Of a stretch of 64,000 nucleotides of DNA, positions 29,184-43,884 are shown in pieces. Under the pieces are notes generated by a model, which worked only from the letters and a program-made list of their open reading frames with translations, searched no databases and was not told where the DNA came from. Made by a program: the position numbers and the translations under genes. Source of the DNA: Acidimicrobiia bacterium. GTDB taxonomy: Bacteria > Actinomycetota > Acidimicrobiia > Acidimicrobiales > Acidimicrobilacustridaceae. Positions within the stretch are counted from its first letter, which is position 1, and each line of letters starts with the position of its first letter. The stretch covers positions 1 through 64,000 of the forward strand of contig JAFIEP010000054.1 of the NCBI GenBank assembly GCA_020832495.1, given 5' to 3'.

Positions 29184-32100
29184 TCAGGCGCCGGTGAGTT
29201 GTGTGTCGAGGTCACCGATGGTGGTGCTGTCGGTGAAGGTGAGTGGTGTGGCCAGGGCGGCGGTGGTGGCGCCGTTCCACCATTGGTTGGTGAGGCCGCT
29301 GCCTGCTGGTGGGATGAAACGGAGGCGGTAGGTGTCGTCGGGGAAGCCTTCGAGGGTCCAGGTGCCGTCGGCTGCGGTGCTGGTGAGGGCGACGGGGACG
29401 AGTTGGCCGGTCCGGTAGAGGGCGACGGTCGTGCCTTCGACGGGTGTGGTGTCGGGTCCGGTGACGGTGCCGCTGGCCGTGTTGGCGCCGACGAGTTGGG
29501 CGTCGATGTCAGAGATGGCGTCGCCGGCGGTGAGGGTGAGGGGGGTGGCGGTGGTGCGGGTGGCGGCGCCGTCCCACCATTGGGGGGCGAGGCCGCTGCC
29601 GGGGGGTGGGAGGACCTGGATGGTGAGTTCGCCGCTGGGGAGGTTGGTCAGGGTGTAGGTGCCGTCGGGGCCGGTGGTGGCGGTGGCGGCGGGGAACCAG
29701 AGGGCGCCGGTGGGCCAGGCGCGGACGGTGGCACCGTCGACGGGGGTGGTGTCGGGGCCGGTGACCGTGCCGGTGACCGTGGTGACGGCGGGGAGCTCGA
29801 GGTCGATGTCGGCCAGTGCGGTGTCGGCGTCAACGATGACGAGCGGTGTGGCGGTGCTGCGCAGGATGGCGCCGTCCCACCAGCGCACCTGCAGGCCGTT
29901 GGTGGAGGTGGCGATGGCGGCCAGGCGGTAGGTGCCGTCGGGCAGACCGCCCAACAGGTAGCTGCCGTCGGGTCCGGTGCTCGTGTAGGCAGTGGGTGAC
30001 CATCCGTCGCTGTCGGACCACACCGCCACCAACGCGTCGGCCAGGGGATCGCCGGCCGTGTCGGTGATCGACCCAGCGACGGTGCCACCGGGAGCCACCA
30101 CGTGGAGTTGGAAGCTGGAACTGGCCGTGAAGCCCCACGGGTCAGTGGTGGTGGCCGTCACCGTCGTCGACCCGAACTCACCAGGTGCTGGGGTGACGGA
30201 CAGGGTGGAGAAAAGCCCGCTGTCGCTGAGCGAGATGTTGCCATCGGGGAGCAGCGCCTGGTTCGACGAGGTGGCGGTCAACGCCACATCGGTGCCGGCG
30301 AGGTCACTCCAGGCGAACACCGTTTGGGGCACGAAGTCGTTGTCGGCCAGGGTCTGGTCGGGAAGGGCCGTAATGGTCGGGCCGCCGGTGACGACGACAT
30401 CGACCTCGAGTGTCTCTTCGGTGATCCCGGGCATGCTGGTGTCCGCACCACTGGGGTTGGAGCCCCAGCACTCGGTCCCACCGGTGTCGACACGAATCCC
30501 GCACCCGTGGCCGGCGTCCTCGGAGAAGGTGCTGAACGGGCCGGCGAGCGGTTGGCCGCTGCCGGCGGTGTCGCCCCAGCACTCGACTGAGCGGTCGGTG
30601 GCCAACAGGCCGCACGAGCCGTTGAACCCCGACCGCAGCTCGAGGAACGGCCCGGCCTGGTCGGTCGACTGTCCGACGTTGTCGGCCCCCCAGCACTGCG
30701 CCGAGTTGTCGGCACGCAGCGCGCAGGTGTGAAACCCACCGACAGCGACCGCGGTGAACGGCCCGGTCTGGGGGTTGGCCTCGCCGAAGTCACTACGACC
30801 CCAGCACTGCACGTCGCCGTCGGCGCGTACACCGCACGAGTGTCCGTTGCCGACGTTCACCGAAACGAACGCCACGTCCTCCGGTGGGCTGGCCTTGCCG
30901 AAGTCGTCGTCGCCCCAGCAGTCGACGTGACCGTTGTCAGCGCGGACGGCGCACGCATGGGTGGGCCCCACATCGAGATCGACAAACGGTCCGGGGTGGA
31001 CTTCGGTGCTCGACGGAAAGAACCAGTAACAGACGGCGCTGTCGTCGCTGGCTCGGATGCCGCAGGCGACGTTCTCATCGATCTCGAAGAGGCGATACGG
31101 TCCCGGTGCTTGGAACTCCGACCCGTCGGTGACGCCGACGCAGGCGACGTCACCGACGGCTTGCAGAGCACAGGTGGCAGGGAAGCTGGCCGACACCATG
31201 CCCAGCGGGGCCTCGTAGGTGAGGGTCGGGTCGAGGGGAGCGATGAAGGAGGCGGCATCGCTGGGGGTTCCGGTGAGGGTGGTGCCGTCGAAGGTGACGC
31301 CGTCGGGGAGTGCGGTTTCGTCGATGGTGAGCGTGGCGTCTGGCCGTTCGGCGAGCTGCGGTGCGAACGAGTAGTTGAAGGGCACCCCGTGCCGCATGAT
31401 CATCTCCGATGGCGGGGCATCGAGCGGGGCCAGCGGGTCGACGGTGAGGTGGACCACTTCGTGTGCGAGGTTCGGCGGCACGTCGGTGCGACCGTCGCTG
31501 GGGTTGCCGAAGCAGGCGGGGGTGGCGTCAGCAGCGATGGTGCAGGTGTGGGTGTAGCCGGCGGCGATGTGGGTGACAGCGCCGGCTGGCGGGCTGCTCT
31601 GCCCTGAGCTGTTGGTGCCCCAGCAGGTGGCGGTCTGGTCGGTGGCGATGGCGCAGCTGTGCAGGTTGCCGGCGGTGACGGCGGTGTAGGCGCCGGCGGG
31701 TGCTTCGACTTGGCCTGCGCTGTCGAAGCCCCAGCAGGTGGCGGACTGGTCAGTGGCGATGGCGCAGCCGTGGAACGCTCCGGCGGCGATTGCTGTGTGG
31801 GTGCCTGGGGGTGGGATGGTTTGTCCGCCGCTGTCGGTGCCCCAGCAGGCGATGGTCTGGTCGGTGGCAACCGCGCAACTGTGGAGTACTCCGACGGCCA
31901 CGGCGGTGTAGGTGCCTGGGGGTGGGATGGTTTGTCCGCCGCTGTCGGTGCCCCAGCAGGCGATGGTCTGGTCGGTTGCGATGGCGCAGAAGTGCTCGCT
32001 GTAGCCGGAGATGGCGGTGTAGGTGCCCGCCGGTGGGGTGGCTTGGTCGAGGTCGTCGCGACCCCAGCAGGCGAGGGTGGCGTCGGTGGCGATGGCGCAC

Positions 32101-32606
32101 GACGTGCCGTCGGCGGCGGCCACGGCGGTGTAGGTGCCCGCCGGTGGGGTGGCTTCGTTGTTGTCGTTGTGGCCCCAGCACAGCAGGGCGTTGTCGGTGT
32201 CGACGGCGCAGGTGTGGCGGGCGCCGGCGTCGATGTCGACCACCTGCAGGTCGCTGGTGGCGGTGACGGTGAACTGGCGGGTGCCGAGCACCAGCGGGGT
32301 GCCAGACAGTTCACCGGTGTCGGCGTCGAGTTCCAACCCGGCGGGCAGCGACCCGGCGGTCACCGACCAGGTGACGTCGGGCCGCTCGTCGGTGAAGGTG
32401 TGGCTGTAGGGGGTGGTCACCGTGGCCGGCGGCGGCGGGTCGGAGGTGATGTTCGCCGGGCCGTCGAGCGATGCCGGGGCGGCCGGAACGCCCGGCTGGG
32501 GCGCGTCGGTCGCACCGGACGCGGCGGGTGCGCCGATGGGGCTCACCAGTGCAGCGAGCAGCAACACCACGGTTGCCACCACGAGACGGTCTCGGACTCG
32601 GGTCAT
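29184..32606 (-). CDS. Large secreted RCC1-repeat protein with Ig-like and carboxypeptidase-regulatory-like repeats
   Basis: Encodes 1140 aa from an ATG at 32606 (GGAGG 9 bases upstream). After a signal peptide (about 1-32) comes a putative-Ig domain, then about seven RCC1-like units of ~37 aa (HTCAVDTDNALLCWGHNDNNEA type). A second Ig-like domain and another block of about six such units follow. A cadherin-like segment and three CarboxypepD_reg-like repeats (SITDTAGDPLADALVAVW, VTGPDTTPVDGATVRAW, VTGPDTTPVEGTTVALY) end the chain. Each RCC1 unit has a CAI/CAV and a CWG motif, so disulfides are likely. No sortase or SLH anchor is seen. Probably a secreted adhesive or scaffold protein. Confidence 0.8.
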   Translation of the reverse strand: MTRVRDRLVVATVVLLLAALVSPIGAPAASGATDAPQPGVPAAPASLDGPANITSDPPPPATVTTPYSHTFTDERPDVTWSVTAGSLPAGLELDADTGELSGTPLVLGTRQFTVTATSDLQVVDIDAGARHTCAVDTDNALLCWGHNDNNEATPPAGTYTAVAAADGTSCAIATDATLACWGRDDLDQATPPAGTYTAISGYSEHFCAIATDQTIACWGTDSGGQTIPPPGTYTAVAVGVLHSCAVATDQTIACWGTDSGGQTIPPPGTHTAIAAGAFHGCAIATDQSATCWGFDSAGQVEAPAGAYTAVTAGNLHSCAIATDQTATCWGTNSSGQSSPPAGAVTHIAAGYTHTCTIAADATPACFGNPSDGRTDVPPNLAHEVVHLTVDPLAPLDAPPSEMIMRHGVPFNYSFAPQLAERPDATLTIDETALPDGVTFDGTTLTGTPSDAASFIAPLDPTLTYEAPLGMVSASFPATCALQAVGDVACVGVTDGSEFQAPGPYRLFEIDENVACGIRASDDSAVCYWFFPSSTEVHPGPFVDLDVGPTHACAVRADNGHVDCWGDDDFGKASPPEDVAFVSVNVGNGHSCGVRADGDVQCWGRSDFGEANPQTGPFTAVAVGGFHTCALRADNSAQCWGADNVGQSTDQAGPFLELRSGFNGSCGLLATDRSVECWGDTAGSGQPLAGPFSTFSEDAGHGCGIRVDTGGTECWGSNPSGADTSMPGITEETLEVDVVVTGGPTITALPDQTLADNDFVPQTVFAWSDLAGTDVALTATSSNQALLPDGNISLSDSGLFSTLSVTPAPGEFGSTTVTATTTDPWGFTASSSFQLHVVAPGGTVAGSITDTAGDPLADALVAVWSDSDGWSPTAYTSTGPDGSYLLGGLPDGTYRLAAIATSTNGLQVRWWDGAILRSTATPLVIVDADTALADIDLELPAVTTVTGTVTGPDTTPVDGATVRAWPTGALWFPAATATTGPDGTYTLTNLPSGELTIQVLPPPGSGLAPQWWDGAATRTTATPLTLTAGDAISDIDAQLVGANTASGTVTGPDTTPVEGTTVALYRTGQLVPVALTSTAADGTWTLEGFPDDTYRLRFIPPAGSGLTNQWWNGATTAALATPLTFTDSTTIGDLDTQLTGA
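31801..31976 (-). repeat. Near-identical 111-bp repeat units in the RCC1-like gene
   Basis: A 65-bp stretch at 31801-31865 recurs without visible change at 31912-31976, an offset of 111 bp, which equals one 37-codon RCC1-like unit. Synonymous sites match too, so the duplication is recent or maintained by gene conversion. Confidence 0.85.
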
Positions 32607-32760
32607 GACGTCGTTCCTCCGCACCATTCGACGAGGCAGGCCTCACCGCAGGCCTGCGCACCGGGCCGCCAGCCGACGCACGAAGAGTTCAGCCGACCCC
32701 TGAACGATAGGGCCGATTCCCAAGCTTGTCCACCAATGTCACCGGTGTCATTCGAAGCGG

Positions 32761-38423: not shown

Positions 38424-38858
38424 GTGCCTGACGAGCAGCGGTCCACGCTGCCTCCCAACCGCACCGCTGTGCGGCAGCGAATCGGTCGAGTGGACGGGTC
38501 CGTGAGACGTCAGCGCCGCCAGAGCCCCCCGCCGGCCGACGTGCTGGTGCCGATGCCGCCCCACGAGCGGTTCCCGGCGGCGGAGCTTCCTGGCGGAGAA
38601 CCCGATCTCCGACCCCTGGTCGAGTTGGCGTCGCTCGACACCGAGGTGCAGTGCCCGCGCTGTGGATGGGTCGGTCGCTGGTTGGCGGTCGACGACGACG
38701 TGCCCACGATTGCCGGCGTTCGCTGCAGTGCCTGTGGGGAGCAGTGGGACCTGGCCGAGGGCGATCCGCCACGGATCGTCGTGGATGTACAGCTCTCGAC
38801 GCTTGATGCTCCGGGGGGAGAGTCCACTCCGGAGGCGATGACAGAGGCGGAGCGCTGA
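38424..38858 (+). CDS. Small zinc-ribbon protein, first gene of the vWA/PP2C/kinase operon
   Basis: Encodes about 144 aa if it starts at the GTG at 38424; in-frame GTG codons at 38490 and 38502 are alternatives and none has a good ribosome site. Two CxxC pairs are visible, CPRCGWVGRWLAVDD and VRCSACGEQWDL, spaced as in a zinc ribbon. The N-terminus is basic. The stop overlaps the vWA gene start (TGATG), so they are co-translated. Zinc-ribbon elements are known to accompany TerY-type vWA, PP2C and kinase sets, which gives the only hint of function. Confidence 0.65.
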   Translation: MPDEQRSTLPPNRTAVRQRIGRVDGSVRRQRRQSPPPADVLVPMPPHERFPAAELPGGEPDLRPLVELASLDTEVQCPRCGWVGRWLAVDDDVPTIAGVRCSACGEQWDLAEGDPPRIVVDVQLSTLDAPGGESTPEAMTEAER

Positions 38859-39709
38859 TGTACAGCCAACAGATCGATCGCACCAACCCGGGATGTCTCG
38901 TGCTGCTGCTCGACCAATCGGGCTCGATGCGCGAACCCATCGCCAACGGTGGTGGCATCTCGAAGGCCGACGCGCTGGCCCGCGCCGTGAACGACCTGCT
39001 GTACGAGCTGGTGCTCCGCTGCATCAAGAACCCCAACGAGGGTCCTCGCCACTACTACGACGTGGCCGTGCTCGGCTACGGCGACGACGAGGCCCGCTCC
39101 GCGCTGAGTGGACCCCTCGCAGCACAGGATCTGGTGTCGATCGTCGACGTGGCCAACCAGCCGGCGCGCGTCGAGGAGCAGTCTTCCGACGTGGCTGACG
39201 TCGGTGGCGACCTGTCGACGATCTCATCCAAGGTGCGCAAGCCCATCTGGGTGGACCCGGTCGCCGCCGGACGGACACCGATGGGGACTGGCCTGAACCG
39301 CGCTGGTGAGGTGGTCGCCCCGTGGGTGGCCGCCCACCCGAACTCCTTCCCGCCCATCGTGCTGAACGTCAGCGACGGCGCGGCCACCGACGGGGATCCC
39401 AGGGTGTGGGCCGAGCGCATCCGGAGCCTGGCCACCTCCGACGGCAACGTCTTGTTCTTCAACCTCAACCTGTCGGCCATCGGCGGCGAGGTCCTCTACT
39501 TCCCGGCGCACGAGGATCGGCTCAGCAACGACTACGCGCGGGTGCTGTTCGAGATGTCGAGCCCCCTCCCACCACACATGGCCCAGATCGCCGCGTCGCA
39601 GGGACTGCCGATCGAGTCGGGCTCGAGGGGTTATGTGTTCAACGCCGACATGAGCGCGGTCGTGCGCTTCCTGCAGATCGGCACGGCCACCGCCCACGCG
39701 ATGGCCTGA
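38858..39709 (+). CDS. TerY-like von Willebrand factor A domain protein
   Basis: Encodes 283 aa from an ATG with GGAG 6 bases upstream. It is almost entirely one vWA domain. The metal site (MIDAS) is complete: D19, S21 and S23 in LLLDQSGSM, the Thr in TPMGTGLNRA and the Asp in VLNVSDGAATD. No signal peptide is present, so it is cytosolic. TerY-type vWA proteins are known to work with a PP2C phosphatase and a kinase in the TerY-P triad described around tellurite-resistance-like systems, and those two genes follow directly. Confidence 0.88.
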   Translation: MYSQQIDRTNPGCLVLLLDQSGSMREPIANGGGISKADALARAVNDLLYELVLRCIKNPNEGPRHYYDVAVLGYGDDEARSALSGPLAAQDLVSIVDVANQPARVEEQSSDVADVGGDLSTISSKVRKPIWVDPVAAGRTPMGTGLNRAGEVVAPWVAAHPNSFPPIVLNVSDGAATDGDPRVWAERIRSLATSDGNVLFFNLNLSAIGGEVLYFPAHEDRLSNDYARVLFEMSSPLPPHMAQIAASQGLPIESGSRGYVFNADMSAVVRFLQIGTATAHAMA

Positions 39710-39723
39710 GCGGTCCGACGCAG

Positions 39724-40464
39724 ATGGGGGCTGTCTGCTACTGGACGCCACGTTCCTCGGCGTCGGTGCACGAGTGGGAGGACGCGTGCGGGTTCGACCT
39801 CGCCGCCGGACGGGCGGCGGTGGCCGATGGCGCCTCGTCGTCGTTCGCCGCCCAACGCTGGGCGCGGGCGCTGGTCGAGGCCTTCCTCGACGAGCCGCCC
39901 CGCACCCTCGACCCCGAGGCCTTCGCCGAGTGGGTGGGCGCGGTGGCCGAGACGTGGAGCGGCACCTTCGATGCCGAGGCCATCGACGGGGACGAGTGGT
40001 ACGTCGGTGAAGCGGCCGCCCGGGGGAGCTTCGCCACCTTCTGTGGGGTGCAGTGGAACGACCTCGGCGACGGGGAGGTCCGATGGCGTTGTTTCGCTGT
40101 CGGCGACGCCTGCCTGTTCCACGTGCGGCGCGGCCGGCTGCTGGTGTCCTTCCCGCACTCGCACCCCGACAGCTTCGACGACGAGCCGGATCTGCTGAGC
40201 ACCAATCGCTACGGCACCGAACGAGGGGCGCGCCATCTCCGGGTGGTCACCGGGACGGCCCGCGTCGGTGACCAGCTGTTGCTGGCCAGCGACGCCTTGG
40301 CGGCGTGGGTGCTGCGGCGTGCTGCACTGGTGGGCGATGGATGGGAGGTGCTCGGTGCACTCGACCACCAGGGCTTCCGCTGGCTGGTCGACACCGAGCG
40401 GGCTCGCGGCGCCATGGCCGACGACGACACCACGCTGGTGCGCTGGGTGGTGGGAGCGTCGTGA
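39724..40464 (+). CDS. PP2C-family Ser/Thr phosphatase
   Basis: Encodes 246 aa from an ATG 14 bp after the vWA gene. Metal-binding signatures of PP2C are present in divergent form: AAVADGASSSF (D35, G36), RCFAVGDACLF (VGDS-like), LLLASDALAAW (D190) and MADDDTTLVRW (D233-D235). Most metal-binding acids are kept, so it is probably active. It likely removes phosphate from substrates of the kinase encoded next, whose GTG start overlaps its stop. The acid-rich loops and short length fit stand-alone PP2C domains of TerY-P triads. Confidence 0.82.
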   Translation: MGAVCYWTPRSSASVHEWEDACGFDLAAGRAAVADGASSSFAAQRWARALVEAFLDEPPRTLDPEAFAEWVGAVAETWSGTFDAEAIDGDEWYVGEAAARGSFATFCGVQWNDLGDGEVRWRCFAVGDACLFHVRRGRLLVSFPHSHPDSFDDEPDLLSTNRYGTERGARHLRVVTGTARVGDQLLLASDALAAWVLRRAALVGDGWEVLGALDHQGFRWLVDTERARGAMADDDTTLVRWVVGAS

Positions 40465-41567
40465 GTCCTGCGCTGTGGCCCTCGGCACGGCAGTACGTCG
40501 ACGCCATCGGGATTCCCGGGTGCCGGGGACCGACCGATCTGCGGGAGGCCTCGCTGCGCGAGGGGCTGTTCGGTCTGCCGAGCTCTGCATCGGGCCAGCA
40601 CGCCATCGTGTTCCCGCTCGACACCGCCGACGGGCCCGAAGCCGTGAAGTGCTTCACCTCCCCACCCGCCGACGCTCTCCGCCAGCGCTACCTCCTGTTG
40701 GGGACCTACCTCCGTCCGCTGACCGGCGCCCCGCTGGTGCGTGCCGAATGGTGTGATCGTGGTGTGCAGGTCGACGGACAGTGGTGGCCCGCCGTGCGGA
40801 TGCCGTGGCTGCCGGGCGACACCCTCGACGTGGCGGTGGAACAACGGCTCGAGGAGCCCGAGCGGCTGGTGGCCCTCGCCGACACGATGCGCCGGGCCAT
40901 CCAGCGCCTGCGGGCCTGCCGGCTGGCGCACGGCGATCTCCAACACGGCAACGCCCTGGTACCCGACGACGACGTCGTGCACCTGGTGGACTACGACGTC
41001 GTGTGGTTCCCCGGGGGTGAGACGTTGGTGCCCGACGAGGTGGGGCACCGCAACTATCAGCACCCCGAACGCATCCGGACAGGCGCGTGGGGCCCGGCCG
41101 TTGATGCCTTCAGCGCCTTGGTCATCCACACGAGCCTCCACGCCTTGGCCAACGACCCCTCCCTGTGGCAGCGCCACAACCGGGGGGAGAACCTCGTGTT
41201 CGCCGAGGAGGACCTGCGGTCGCCCGCCTCCAGCGCGGTGTTTGCCGAGTTGGCGGGGTGCGGTGACGAGTGGGTGCGGACCCTGGCGTCGGCGACGGCC
41301 ACCTGCGCGACGGCTCCGCTGCGGACCGTCCCTGACCTCGAGGAGCTCCTGCGTTCACTGCGGGAGGACGGCTCGGTACCGTTGCGCGACGACGTCGACG
41401 CGCCGGGCAAGCACCCCGACTGGCTGCGGCCACCGGAACTCGTCGCACAGGACGTCGGCCGCTACGCGGACGTGGGCGACGACTGGGCCGCGGCCGAGAT
41501 GCCCCCCGAGGCGGAGTTCGTGAGCGGCGGCGGCGCCGGTCGTCGCTGGTTCCGACGTCGCCGCTGA
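40461..41567 (+). CDS. Divergent Ser/Thr protein kinase of the vWA/PP2C set
   Basis: Encodes 368 aa from a GTG overlapping the phosphatase stop. The kinase core is short but has key residues: K63 in AVKCF, catalytic D159 and N164 in HGDLQHGN, and metal Asp D177 in LVDYDVVWF. HGD in place of HRD and DYD in place of DFG are seen in RIO-, lipopolysaccharide- and Ter-type kinases. A glycine-rich loop is not obvious. A C-terminal extension of about 100 residues (DLEELLRSLREDG ... RRWFRRRR) ends in a strongly basic tail. With the preceding genes it would form a phosphorylation switch. Confidence 0.8.
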   Translation: MSPALWPSARQYVDAIGIPGCRGPTDLREASLREGLFGLPSSASGQHAIVFPLDTADGPEAVKCFTSPPADALRQRYLLLGTYLRPLTGAPLVRAEWCDRGVQVDGQWWPAVRMPWLPGDTLDVAVEQRLEEPERLVALADTMRRAIQRLRACRLAHGDLQHGNALVPDDDVVHLVDYDVVWFPGGETLVPDEVGHRNYQHPERIRTGAWGPAVDAFSALVIHTSLHALANDPSLWQRHNRGENLVFAEEDLRSPASSAVFAELAGCGDEWVRTLASATATCATAPLRTVPDLEELLRSLREDGSVPLRDDVDAPGKHPDWLRPPELVAQDVGRYADVGDDWAAAEMPPEAEFVSGGGAGRRWFRRRR

Positions 41568-41708: not shown

Positions 41709-41963
41709 ATGCGTTCCGACGACCAGTACCCCAACCACGGTTCCGGTGCTGAACCGCCGGACGGCCAGTCTCACGTGTGGCGGGAAGGAGGCGGTCCGAT
41801 GCCCGGTGCTGCTCGACAGCGTCGCTTCGGATGGGGTCGTGCGTATCACCTGCTGCCAGAGGACGGCTCGGCGCCCGATCGGCCACCCTTGCAGGGCGTC
41901 GCCGCCCTCGGCCTCGGCATTGCCGTGCTGTGTGTGCTCATCCTGATCTTCGTGGCGACCTGA
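41709..41963 (+). CDS. Small single-pass membrane protein
   Basis: Encodes 84 aa from an ATG with AGAGGTG close upstream. The first 60 residues are polar and Gly/Pro-rich, with no family I recognise. Residues about 62-82 (GVAALGLGIAVLCVLILIFVA) form one membrane helix at the very C-terminus, as in tail-anchored proteins. It lies 141 bp after the kinase gene on the same strand and may be its last operon member. It converges on the nucleotidyltransferase gene. Confidence 0.6.
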   Translation: MRSDDQYPNHGSGAEPPDGQSHVWREGGGPMPGAARQRRFGWGRAYHLLPEDGSAPDRPPLQGVAALGLGIAVLCVLILIFVAT

Positions 41964-42684: not shown

Positions 42685-43563
42685 ATGCAGATCGACGGGT
42701 ACGGAGACCTCACGCGCCTCGCTTCGGACGAGGGCGCCGCTGTCTACCGCGGCGTCGACGAGCAGTCCGACCGGACCGTGACGGTCAAGGTGCTCGACCG
42801 AGCCATTGACGATTCGTCGGTGCAGCGTTCGTTCCGCCGTGAGTGTGAGGCGTTGGTTCGACTCGGCGGCCACCCCAACATCATCGCCGTGCTCGACGCC
42901 GGCTTCCTCGACGACGACCGGCCCTACCTGGTGACAGAGTACGACACCGAGGGTTCGCTGGCGGCGAAGGCGAACCGGCACGGGCCACTGCCGGTCGACG
43001 AAGTGGTGCAGATCGGGGTGAAGTGCGCTGGTGCCATGGCCACGGCGCACGTCGCCGGCGTCATCCACCGGGCCATCACGCCAGCGCACCTCCTGGTGTT
43101 GTCGTCCGGCGAGGTCGGCATCACCGGGTTCGACCTGGCGGCGCTGTCGTCGGCGAGTCGCACGTCCGACCACACCGCCCCCGAGGTGATCGAGGGCCAC
43201 CCGGCTGACGCCCGTTCGGACATCTACTCGCTGTGCTCGACGCTGTGGTACCTGCTCGTCGGCGACGCCTCCGACACGCCCGACGTCCCTACGTCCCTCG
43301 AGCGGTTGCTCGCCGAGGGGTTGGCCGCGGACCCCACCGATCGACCATTGACGATGACGGCATTGGCTGGCCGCCTGCAAGGCATCGAGCGGGAACGCCA
43401 TGTTGCGGTCACCATGCCGGTGGTGCAGCGCCTGCCTGGTGGCAGCAACGAGAGGACTCCTGCGGCTCCCTCGCCGGCGGCGCCCGAGCCGGTGGCAGTG
43501 GGGGGCGGTGAGCAGCAGGAACCACCGTGGTGGATGGACGCGTTCACCCACGGTTCTGTGTGA
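42685..43563 (+). CDS. Protein kinase-fold protein lacking catalytic residues (pseudokinase)
   Basis: Encodes 292 aa from an ATG with GGAG 5 bases upstream. The fold is clear: K35 in VTVKVL, E53 in the C-helix, HPNIIAVLDAGF, TAPEVIEG and SDIYSLCSTLWYLL. The catalytic loop reads HRAITPAHLL where active kinases have HRDIKPANLL, so the catalytic Asp (A130), Lys (T132) and Asn (H135) are all replaced. The DFG motif reads GFD (148-150). It should not transfer phosphate. It has no membrane helix or PASTA domains, and the tail is Pro/Ala-rich ending in PPWWMDAF. A scaffold or allosteric role, perhaps with an active kinase, is inferred. Confidence 0.85.
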   Translation: MQIDGYGDLTRLASDEGAAVYRGVDEQSDRTVTVKVLDRAIDDSSVQRSFRRECEALVRLGGHPNIIAVLDAGFLDDDRPYLVTEYDTEGSLAAKANRHGPLPVDEVVQIGVKCAGAMATAHVAGVIHRAITPAHLLVLSSGEVGITGFDLAALSSASRTSDHTAPEVIEGHPADARSDIYSLCSTLWYLLVGDASDTPDVPTSLERLLAEGLAADPTDRPLTMTALAGRLQGIERERHVAVTMPVVQRLPGGSNERTPAAPSPAAPEPVAVGGGEQQEPPWWMDAFTHGSV

Positions 43564-43853: not shown

Positions 43854-43884
43854 CGACCTCCCACGGGGAGGTCGTTTGCGTTTT
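43854..43884 (+). terminator. Attenuator terminator before ilvB
   Basis: CGACCTCCC pairs perfectly with GGGAGGTCG around a three-base loop (43854-43874), followed by the T-rich GTTTGCGTTTT. An upstream CGACCT (43831-43836) could compete for the AGGTCG arm, giving a possible antiterminator. The remaining ~130 bases to ilvB hold only its ribosome-binding site. Confidence 0.7.

What the first reader, a model, noticed from the sequence alone, without database searches (positions are those of the whole stretch)
38424..41567. Compact zinc-ribbon / TerY-like vWA / PP2C / kinase operon
Four tightly spaced genes (overlaps of 1 and 4 bp, one gap of 14 bp) encode a two-CxxC zinc ribbon, a complete-MIDAS vWA protein, a PP2C-like phosphatase and a divergent kinase with HGD and DYD motifs. 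Published comparative work (Anantharaman, Iyer and Aravind on Ter systems) describes a TerY-P triad of vWA, PP2C and kinase. This set fits that scheme, but no TerD/TerC genes are visible within the window, and the ribbon is a separate protein. It may be a stand-alone phosphorylation switch for stress or defence.
Basis: partly seen in the sequence, partly recalled or inferred. Interest (0 to 1): 0.75.

Follow-up and report, generated by a model that had tools for sequence, protein, structure and literature searches.

The report
TerY-P kinase–phosphatase–vWA switch
Three adjacent bacterial genes encode a metal-site adaptor protein, a phosphatase and a kinase of the known TerY-P type, a protein on/off switch tied elsewhere to defence against viruses; the unusual points are a kinase stripped of its usual extra domain and a separate small zinc protein placed in front.

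Summary
The vWA, PP2C and kinase proteins match the three PADLOC profiles of the TerY-P anti-phage system (TerY E=8.6e-81, PP2C 5.4e-38, STK_OB 2.5e-50, kinase part only). Catalytic and MIDAS residues are kept, and the order vWA-PP2C-kinase holds in 15 of 22 related loci from several phyla. The own genome has no TerD or TerC, so this is not a tellurite island. The set is a sporadic insertion after ilvD; its nearest kin lie in other lineages of the phylum. What differs: the kinase ends in a tail predicted to be disordered, where published TerY-P kinases carry an OB fold or zinc ribbon and its relatives carry membrane, coiled-coil, FHA or zinc-ribbon parts. A short zinc-ribbon gene overlaps the vWA start, but no relative of the triad has it and its coding signal is weak, so its membership is unproven. 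Best reading: a stand-alone TerY-P phosphorylation switch, probably for phage defence or stress; target unknown. Side finding: in the two closest relatives the triad follows contractile injection system genes, resembling T6SS control by PpkA/PppA.

The parts
38424..38858 (+). small zinc-ribbon protein, 144 aa (118 aa if started at GTG 38502); CPRC...CSAC; membership in the system unproven
   Evidence: sub-threshold Zn_ribbon hits, no TerY_C; no close relative; best 44% over the ribbon in an unrelated context; weak coding signal
38858..39709 (+). TerY-like vWA protein, 283 aa, complete MIDAS
   Evidence: PADLOC TerY 8.6e-81, profile 3-274/277; AF2 pLDDT 93; vWA/integrin I-domain folds
39724..40464 (+). 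PP2C phosphatase, 246 aa, metal-site Asp residues intact
   Evidence: PF13672 26.0 bits, over cut-off 24; PADLOC PP2C 5.4e-38, 10-237/242
40461..41567 (+). TerY-P-type protein kinase, 368 aa: kinase core 1-302, then a tail predicted to be disordered; no OB fold, zinc ribbon or TM helix
   Evidence: STK_OB 2.5e-50, profile 3-295 of 562; no TM; AF2 pLDDT >90 over most of 10-300, <50 for 310-368; protein kinase fold

Best explanation
A stand-alone TerY-P triad acquired horizontally between ilvD and the nadD-like/ilvB genes. Shown: three proteins of the TerY-P families, with kinase, PP2C and MIDAS residues intact, in the conserved gene order and tightly coupled. Inferred: the kinase phosphorylates the vWA protein and/or a bound partner on Ser/Thr, the PP2C protein removes the phosphate, and the vWA protein is the metal-dependent adaptor that brings kinase and phosphatase to the target. 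A phage or stress signal shifts the balance and so switches an effector response on. The target and the signal are unknown. The separate zinc ribbon may stand in for the nucleic-acid- or metal-sensing module that is fused to the kinase in other TerY-P systems; this last step is speculative.
For: PADLOC profiles for all three proteins, and STK_OB matched by all 16 aligned kinases. Catalytic residues conserved. Confident AF2 models with kinase and vWA folds. Order vWA-PP2C-kinase in 15 of 22 loci in Actinomycetota, Chloroflexota, Bacteroidota and Cyanobacteria. Sporadic presence: 1 of 37 genomes of the own family; 10 of 397 genomes sampled in the order, one of them a 24-residue match only. Nearest kin lie in other lineages while other triads of the same order form a separate clade. 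Insertion between ilvD and genes that are syntenic without it in relatives. Published: TerY-P protects against T7-like phages (PMC7699616) and against Autographiviridae in P. aeruginosa (PMC10889362).
Against: No defence genes are evident around it; the neighbours are amino-acid biosynthesis and housekeeping genes. The kinase lacks the OB fold of the TerY-P system tested by Gao et al. Most relatives have Arg in place of the ATP-site Lys (15 of 17 by reading; the window keeps Lys63), so strong catalysis is not certain for the family. No activity or phage data exist for this branch.
Confidence: 0.6

Rival explanations
1. A regulatory switch for a non-defence machine or stress response, as in the T6SS threonine-phosphorylation pathway (PpkA/PppA/Fha) or the archaeal Arn system (vWA ArnB, FHA ArnA, kinase ArnC, PP2A), not phage immunity.
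For: The nearest clade contains triads next to an extracellular contractile injection cluster (G270, and G122 as far as read: CIS tube, gp25, baseplate J, spike, AAA+WHD) and kinases or membrane proteins with FHA domains (L008, L057). PpkA carries a vWA domain (PMC3224232); ArnA/B/C/PP2A is a vWA-FHA-kinase-phosphatase module (PMC7472852).
Against: The own genome has no sheath (PF04984) or CIS ATPase domain (PF22977), and no FHA protein is encoded in the triad. Sporadic distribution fits an accessory cassette.
Confidence: 0.27
2. The four genes are a true four-part system, with the zinc ribbon replacing in trans the ribbon/OB domain missing from the kinase. (Compatible with the best explanation; its confidence is given on its own.)
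For: 1 bp overlap with the vWA start; the kinase tail is predicted to be disordered and has no domain; ribbon-fused TerY-P kinases exist (PMC11090510; L010 second kinase).
Against: No ribbon gene next to any other triad of the clade; ribbon relatives in the order are generic small proteins in other contexts; weak coding signal; no relative in the own genus to test.
Confidence: 0.3
3. Decayed or housekeeping-recruited cassette: a kinase stripped of its effector tail, maintained for some unrelated signalling role.
For: Tail-less kinase; core-metabolic location; degenerate kinase-like gene 1 kb downstream (42685-43563).
Against: All catalytic residues and strong coding signal kept in the three proteins; no frameshift or stop.
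Confidence: 0.1

Closest known systems
TerY-P anti-phage system (PADLOC TerY + PP2C + STK_OB; Gao et al. 2020)
   Same: All three profiles matched; TerY and PP2C over full length, kinase over the catalytic part; the three genes adjacent
   Different: Kinase is 368 aa against a 562-position profile and lacks the C-terminal OB-fold half; extra zinc-ribbon ORF upstream
TerY-P triad of type II/III-A CoCoNuT restriction loci (PMC11090510)
   Same: vWA with full MIDAS, PP2C, kinase
   Different: Kinase not fused to a zinc ribbon; no McrBC/CoCoNuT genes seen near it
Ter tellurite/stress islands (TerD, TerC, TerY)
   Same: TerY-like vWA
   Different: No TerD or TerC found in the genome
T6SS threonine-phosphorylation pathway PpkA/PppA/Fha
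   Same: Kinase, PP2C and vWA parts; near kin sit beside a contractile injection system or carry FHA domains
   Different: vWA is a separate protein without a signal for export noted; no contractile machine found in this genome by PF04984/PF22977

Membership tests
TerY-P triad | TerY-like vWA with complete MIDAS | tested here: met
   8.6e-81; D19, S21, S23, T140, D173 invariant
TerY-P triad | PP2C phosphatase with metal-site residues | tested here: met
TerY-P triad | TerY-P-type Ser/Thr kinase catalytic domain | tested here: met
   (STK_OB 2.5e-50), (fold)
TerY-P triad | The three genes adjacent in one operon, order kept in relatives | tested here: met
   15 of 22 loci vWA-PP2C-kinase
TerY-P anti-phage system of Gao et al. 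(STK-OB) | Kinase fused at its C-terminus to an OB fold | tested here: not met
   profile matched only 3-295 of 562; residues 310-368 predicted disordered
CoCoNuT-associated TerY-P | Kinase fused to a zinc ribbon | tested here: not met
   no CxxC pair in the kinase; the ribbon is a separate ORF
TerY-P anti-phage system of Gao et al. (STK-OB) | Protection against phages | not testable with these tools
   needs a plaque assay
Ter tellurite-resistance system | TerD-family and TerC proteins in the genome | tested here: not met
   PF02342 and PF03741: no match in G000 (97% complete), controls positive
TerY with TerY-C metal-binding domain | TerY_C-type Pfam domain in vWA or ribbon protein | tested here: not met
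   no such hit up to E=1 for either protein

The most novel reading that the evidence does not exclude
A four-part TerY-P variant in which sensing (a free zinc-ribbon protein) and catalysis (a bare kinase core) are split, belonging to a branch of triads whose other members plug into contractile injection systems or FHA membrane proteins; TerY-P would then be a general phospho-switch cassette for machines that must be triggered, not only an anti-phage add-on.
Probability: 0.15. Interest if true: 0.6.

Novelty: new variant of a known kind. Interest (0 to 1): 0.35.

Why it matters
How TerY-P works is unknown. A member with the kinase reduced to its catalytic core is a good minimal system for biochemistry, and the range of C-terminal modules in its relatives (membrane stretches with coiled coil, FHA, zinc ribbon, OB) suggests that the triad is a switch that can be wired to different outputs. 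Its presence beside contractile injection genes in the closest relatives would link anti-phage TerY-P to the phospho-control of T6SS.

Tried and rejected
Tellurite/Ter island: rejected, no TerD/TerC in the genome. Ribbon as conserved partner: sought by CxxC scan of all related loci and by protein search of 397 genomes of the order; only generic ribbon proteins in unrelated contexts. Small TM gene 41709-41963 as a detached membrane anchor of the kinase: rejected, because a look-alike (by eye, not by BLAST) sits beside the nadD-like gene in G010, which has no triad. Frameshifted kinase tail: no TM or conserved domain seen in the downstream sequence; the tail shows by-eye similarity to the juxtamembrane stretch of L031/L032. 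Sigma-70 promoter scan: nothing found; the one terminator-like site, at 43854, is no more than shuffles give. A viral-library fold search was submitted but not collected.

Full report
Observation. The four ORFs, spacings and motifs are as described. Coding signal is strong for vWA, PP2C and kinase and weak for the ribbon ORF, although its frame is the best of six. The ribbon start is uncertain (GTG 38424, GTG 38502, or ATG 38553).

Identity. PADLOC places the three main proteins in exactly the three TerY-P families: TerY 8.6e-81 (3-274 of 277), PP2C 5.4e-38 (10-237 of 242), STK_OB 2.5e-50 (3-295 of 562). Pfam is less sensitive: PP2C_2 over its cut-off, Pkinase just under (31.0 against 31.7 bits), VWA_2 under. 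Alignments with relatives show invariant MIDAS (D19, S21, S23, T140, D173), PP2C acidic residues (D20, D35, D190, D234, D235) and kinase residues (H157, D159, N164, D177). AF2 models are confident: vWA mean pLDDT 93; kinase mostly above 90 over residues 10-300. They match vWA/integrin I domains and protein kinases in the PDB.

Kinase architecture. The kinase of the window stops soon after its catalytic core; residues 310-368 are predicted disordered and end in a basic run. Relatives carry varied tails: two hydrophobic stretches plus a long coiled coil and an HHH-like segment in most triads of the same order, and a similar tail in L007; a TM stretch with an outer domain in L031/L032; several TM stretches plus FHA in L008; a double zinc ribbon in the second kinase of L010. 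The coiled-coil and HHH labels are by eye. In 15 of 17 aligned kinases the ATP-site Lys is Arg; the window keeps Lys63 (read).

Order and distribution. vWA-PP2C-kinase order holds in 15 of 22 loci; L008 has kinase-vWA-PP2C; in L006, L009, L011, L012, L013 and L057 one or two partners were not found, some contigs being short. Of the 37 genomes of the own family searched, only the own one has it. In 397 genomes of the order ten match, one of them a 24-residue fragment. In the phylum sample 16 match, six of them strongly. In trees of vWA and kinase the window groups with L008 and with G270/G122 of another lineage of the phylum (98/98 for a five-row vWA set with L057; 100/99 for four kinases), apart from the other triads of its order. 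This points to horizontal gain.

Insertion site. Relatives keep ilvD-ilvB-ilvN-ilvC. In G005 only 246 bp separate ilvD and ilvB. In G010 a nadD-like gene, and by eye a look-alike of the small TM gene at 41709-41963, lie between them without a triad; other relatives carry unrelated genes in this interval. So the small TM gene and the nadD-like gene are probably ancestral, and the block 38424-41567 is the insertion.

Ribbon. No triad-bearing locus of the clade has a comparable ORF beside vWA; L009 has a CxxC pair in a long ORF upstream and L010 has ribbons fused or downstream. The best relative in 397 genomes is a 126-codon ORF in G553 (44% over the ribbon, E 4e-6), not next to any triad. The own genome and others carry similar generic ribbons. 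Its role rests on the 1 bp overlap alone.

Function. Published work: TerY-P is active against T7-like phages (PMC7699616) and Autographiviridae (PMC10889362); the triad is seen as a metal-sensing phospho-switch, with OB or zinc-ribbon fusions suggesting nucleic-acid binding (PMC11090510). The most likely reading is a stand-alone TerY-P switch for defence or stress. Kinase, phosphatase and vWA roles are inferred from family; target and trigger are unknown.

Side finding. In G270 the triad follows, on the same strand, a contractile injection cluster: CIS tube PF19266, spike PF04717, gp25 PF04965, baseplate J PF04865, P2 tail I PF09684, AAA+WHD PF22977, then TPR, a 91-aa ORF, a coiled-coil protein, vWA, PP2C and kinase with 4 bp overlaps. 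G122 has an AAA+WHD gene and the same small ORF, coiled-coil protein and triad in the stretch read. No paper in the library held both 'contractile injection system' and 'TerY', which is weak evidence of novelty. The own genome has no sheath or WHD match.

Noticed in passing
L031 / L094 (G270) and L032 (G122): TerY-P triads sit directly downstream of extracellular contractile injection system genes, with a kinase that has a TM stretch and outer domain; resembles T6SS PpkA/PppA control and may be unreported.
   Followed up: partly
window 42685-43563 (+): PknB-like kinase gene with degenerate catalytic motifs (HRD to HRA, catalytic-loop Asn to His, DFG to GFD): likely pseudokinase, absent from the ilvD-ilvB interval of relatives; L008 has an intact kinase of this type overlapping its TerY-P kinase gene.
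   Followed up: partly
kinase alignment A2, residue 63 of the window kinase: Most TerY-P-type kinases here have Arg in place of the ATP-site Lys (15 of 17), while the window protein and L033 keep Lys.
   Followed up: partly
L008 2547-4625 and L057 275-1378: FHA domains on multi-TM proteins next to vWA/PP2C genes; in L057 no TerY-P kinase was found in the stretch read, so an FHA membrane protein takes its place.
   Followed up: partly
interval ilvD-ilvB in relatives (L076-L083): Variable cargo between ilvD and ilvB (246 bp to 3.6 kb), including large membrane proteins; looks like a tolerant insertion spot.
   Followed up: partly
window 29184-32627 (-): Large protein with RCC1 repeats and carboxypeptidase-regulatory-like/SdrD_B domains.
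   Followed up: no
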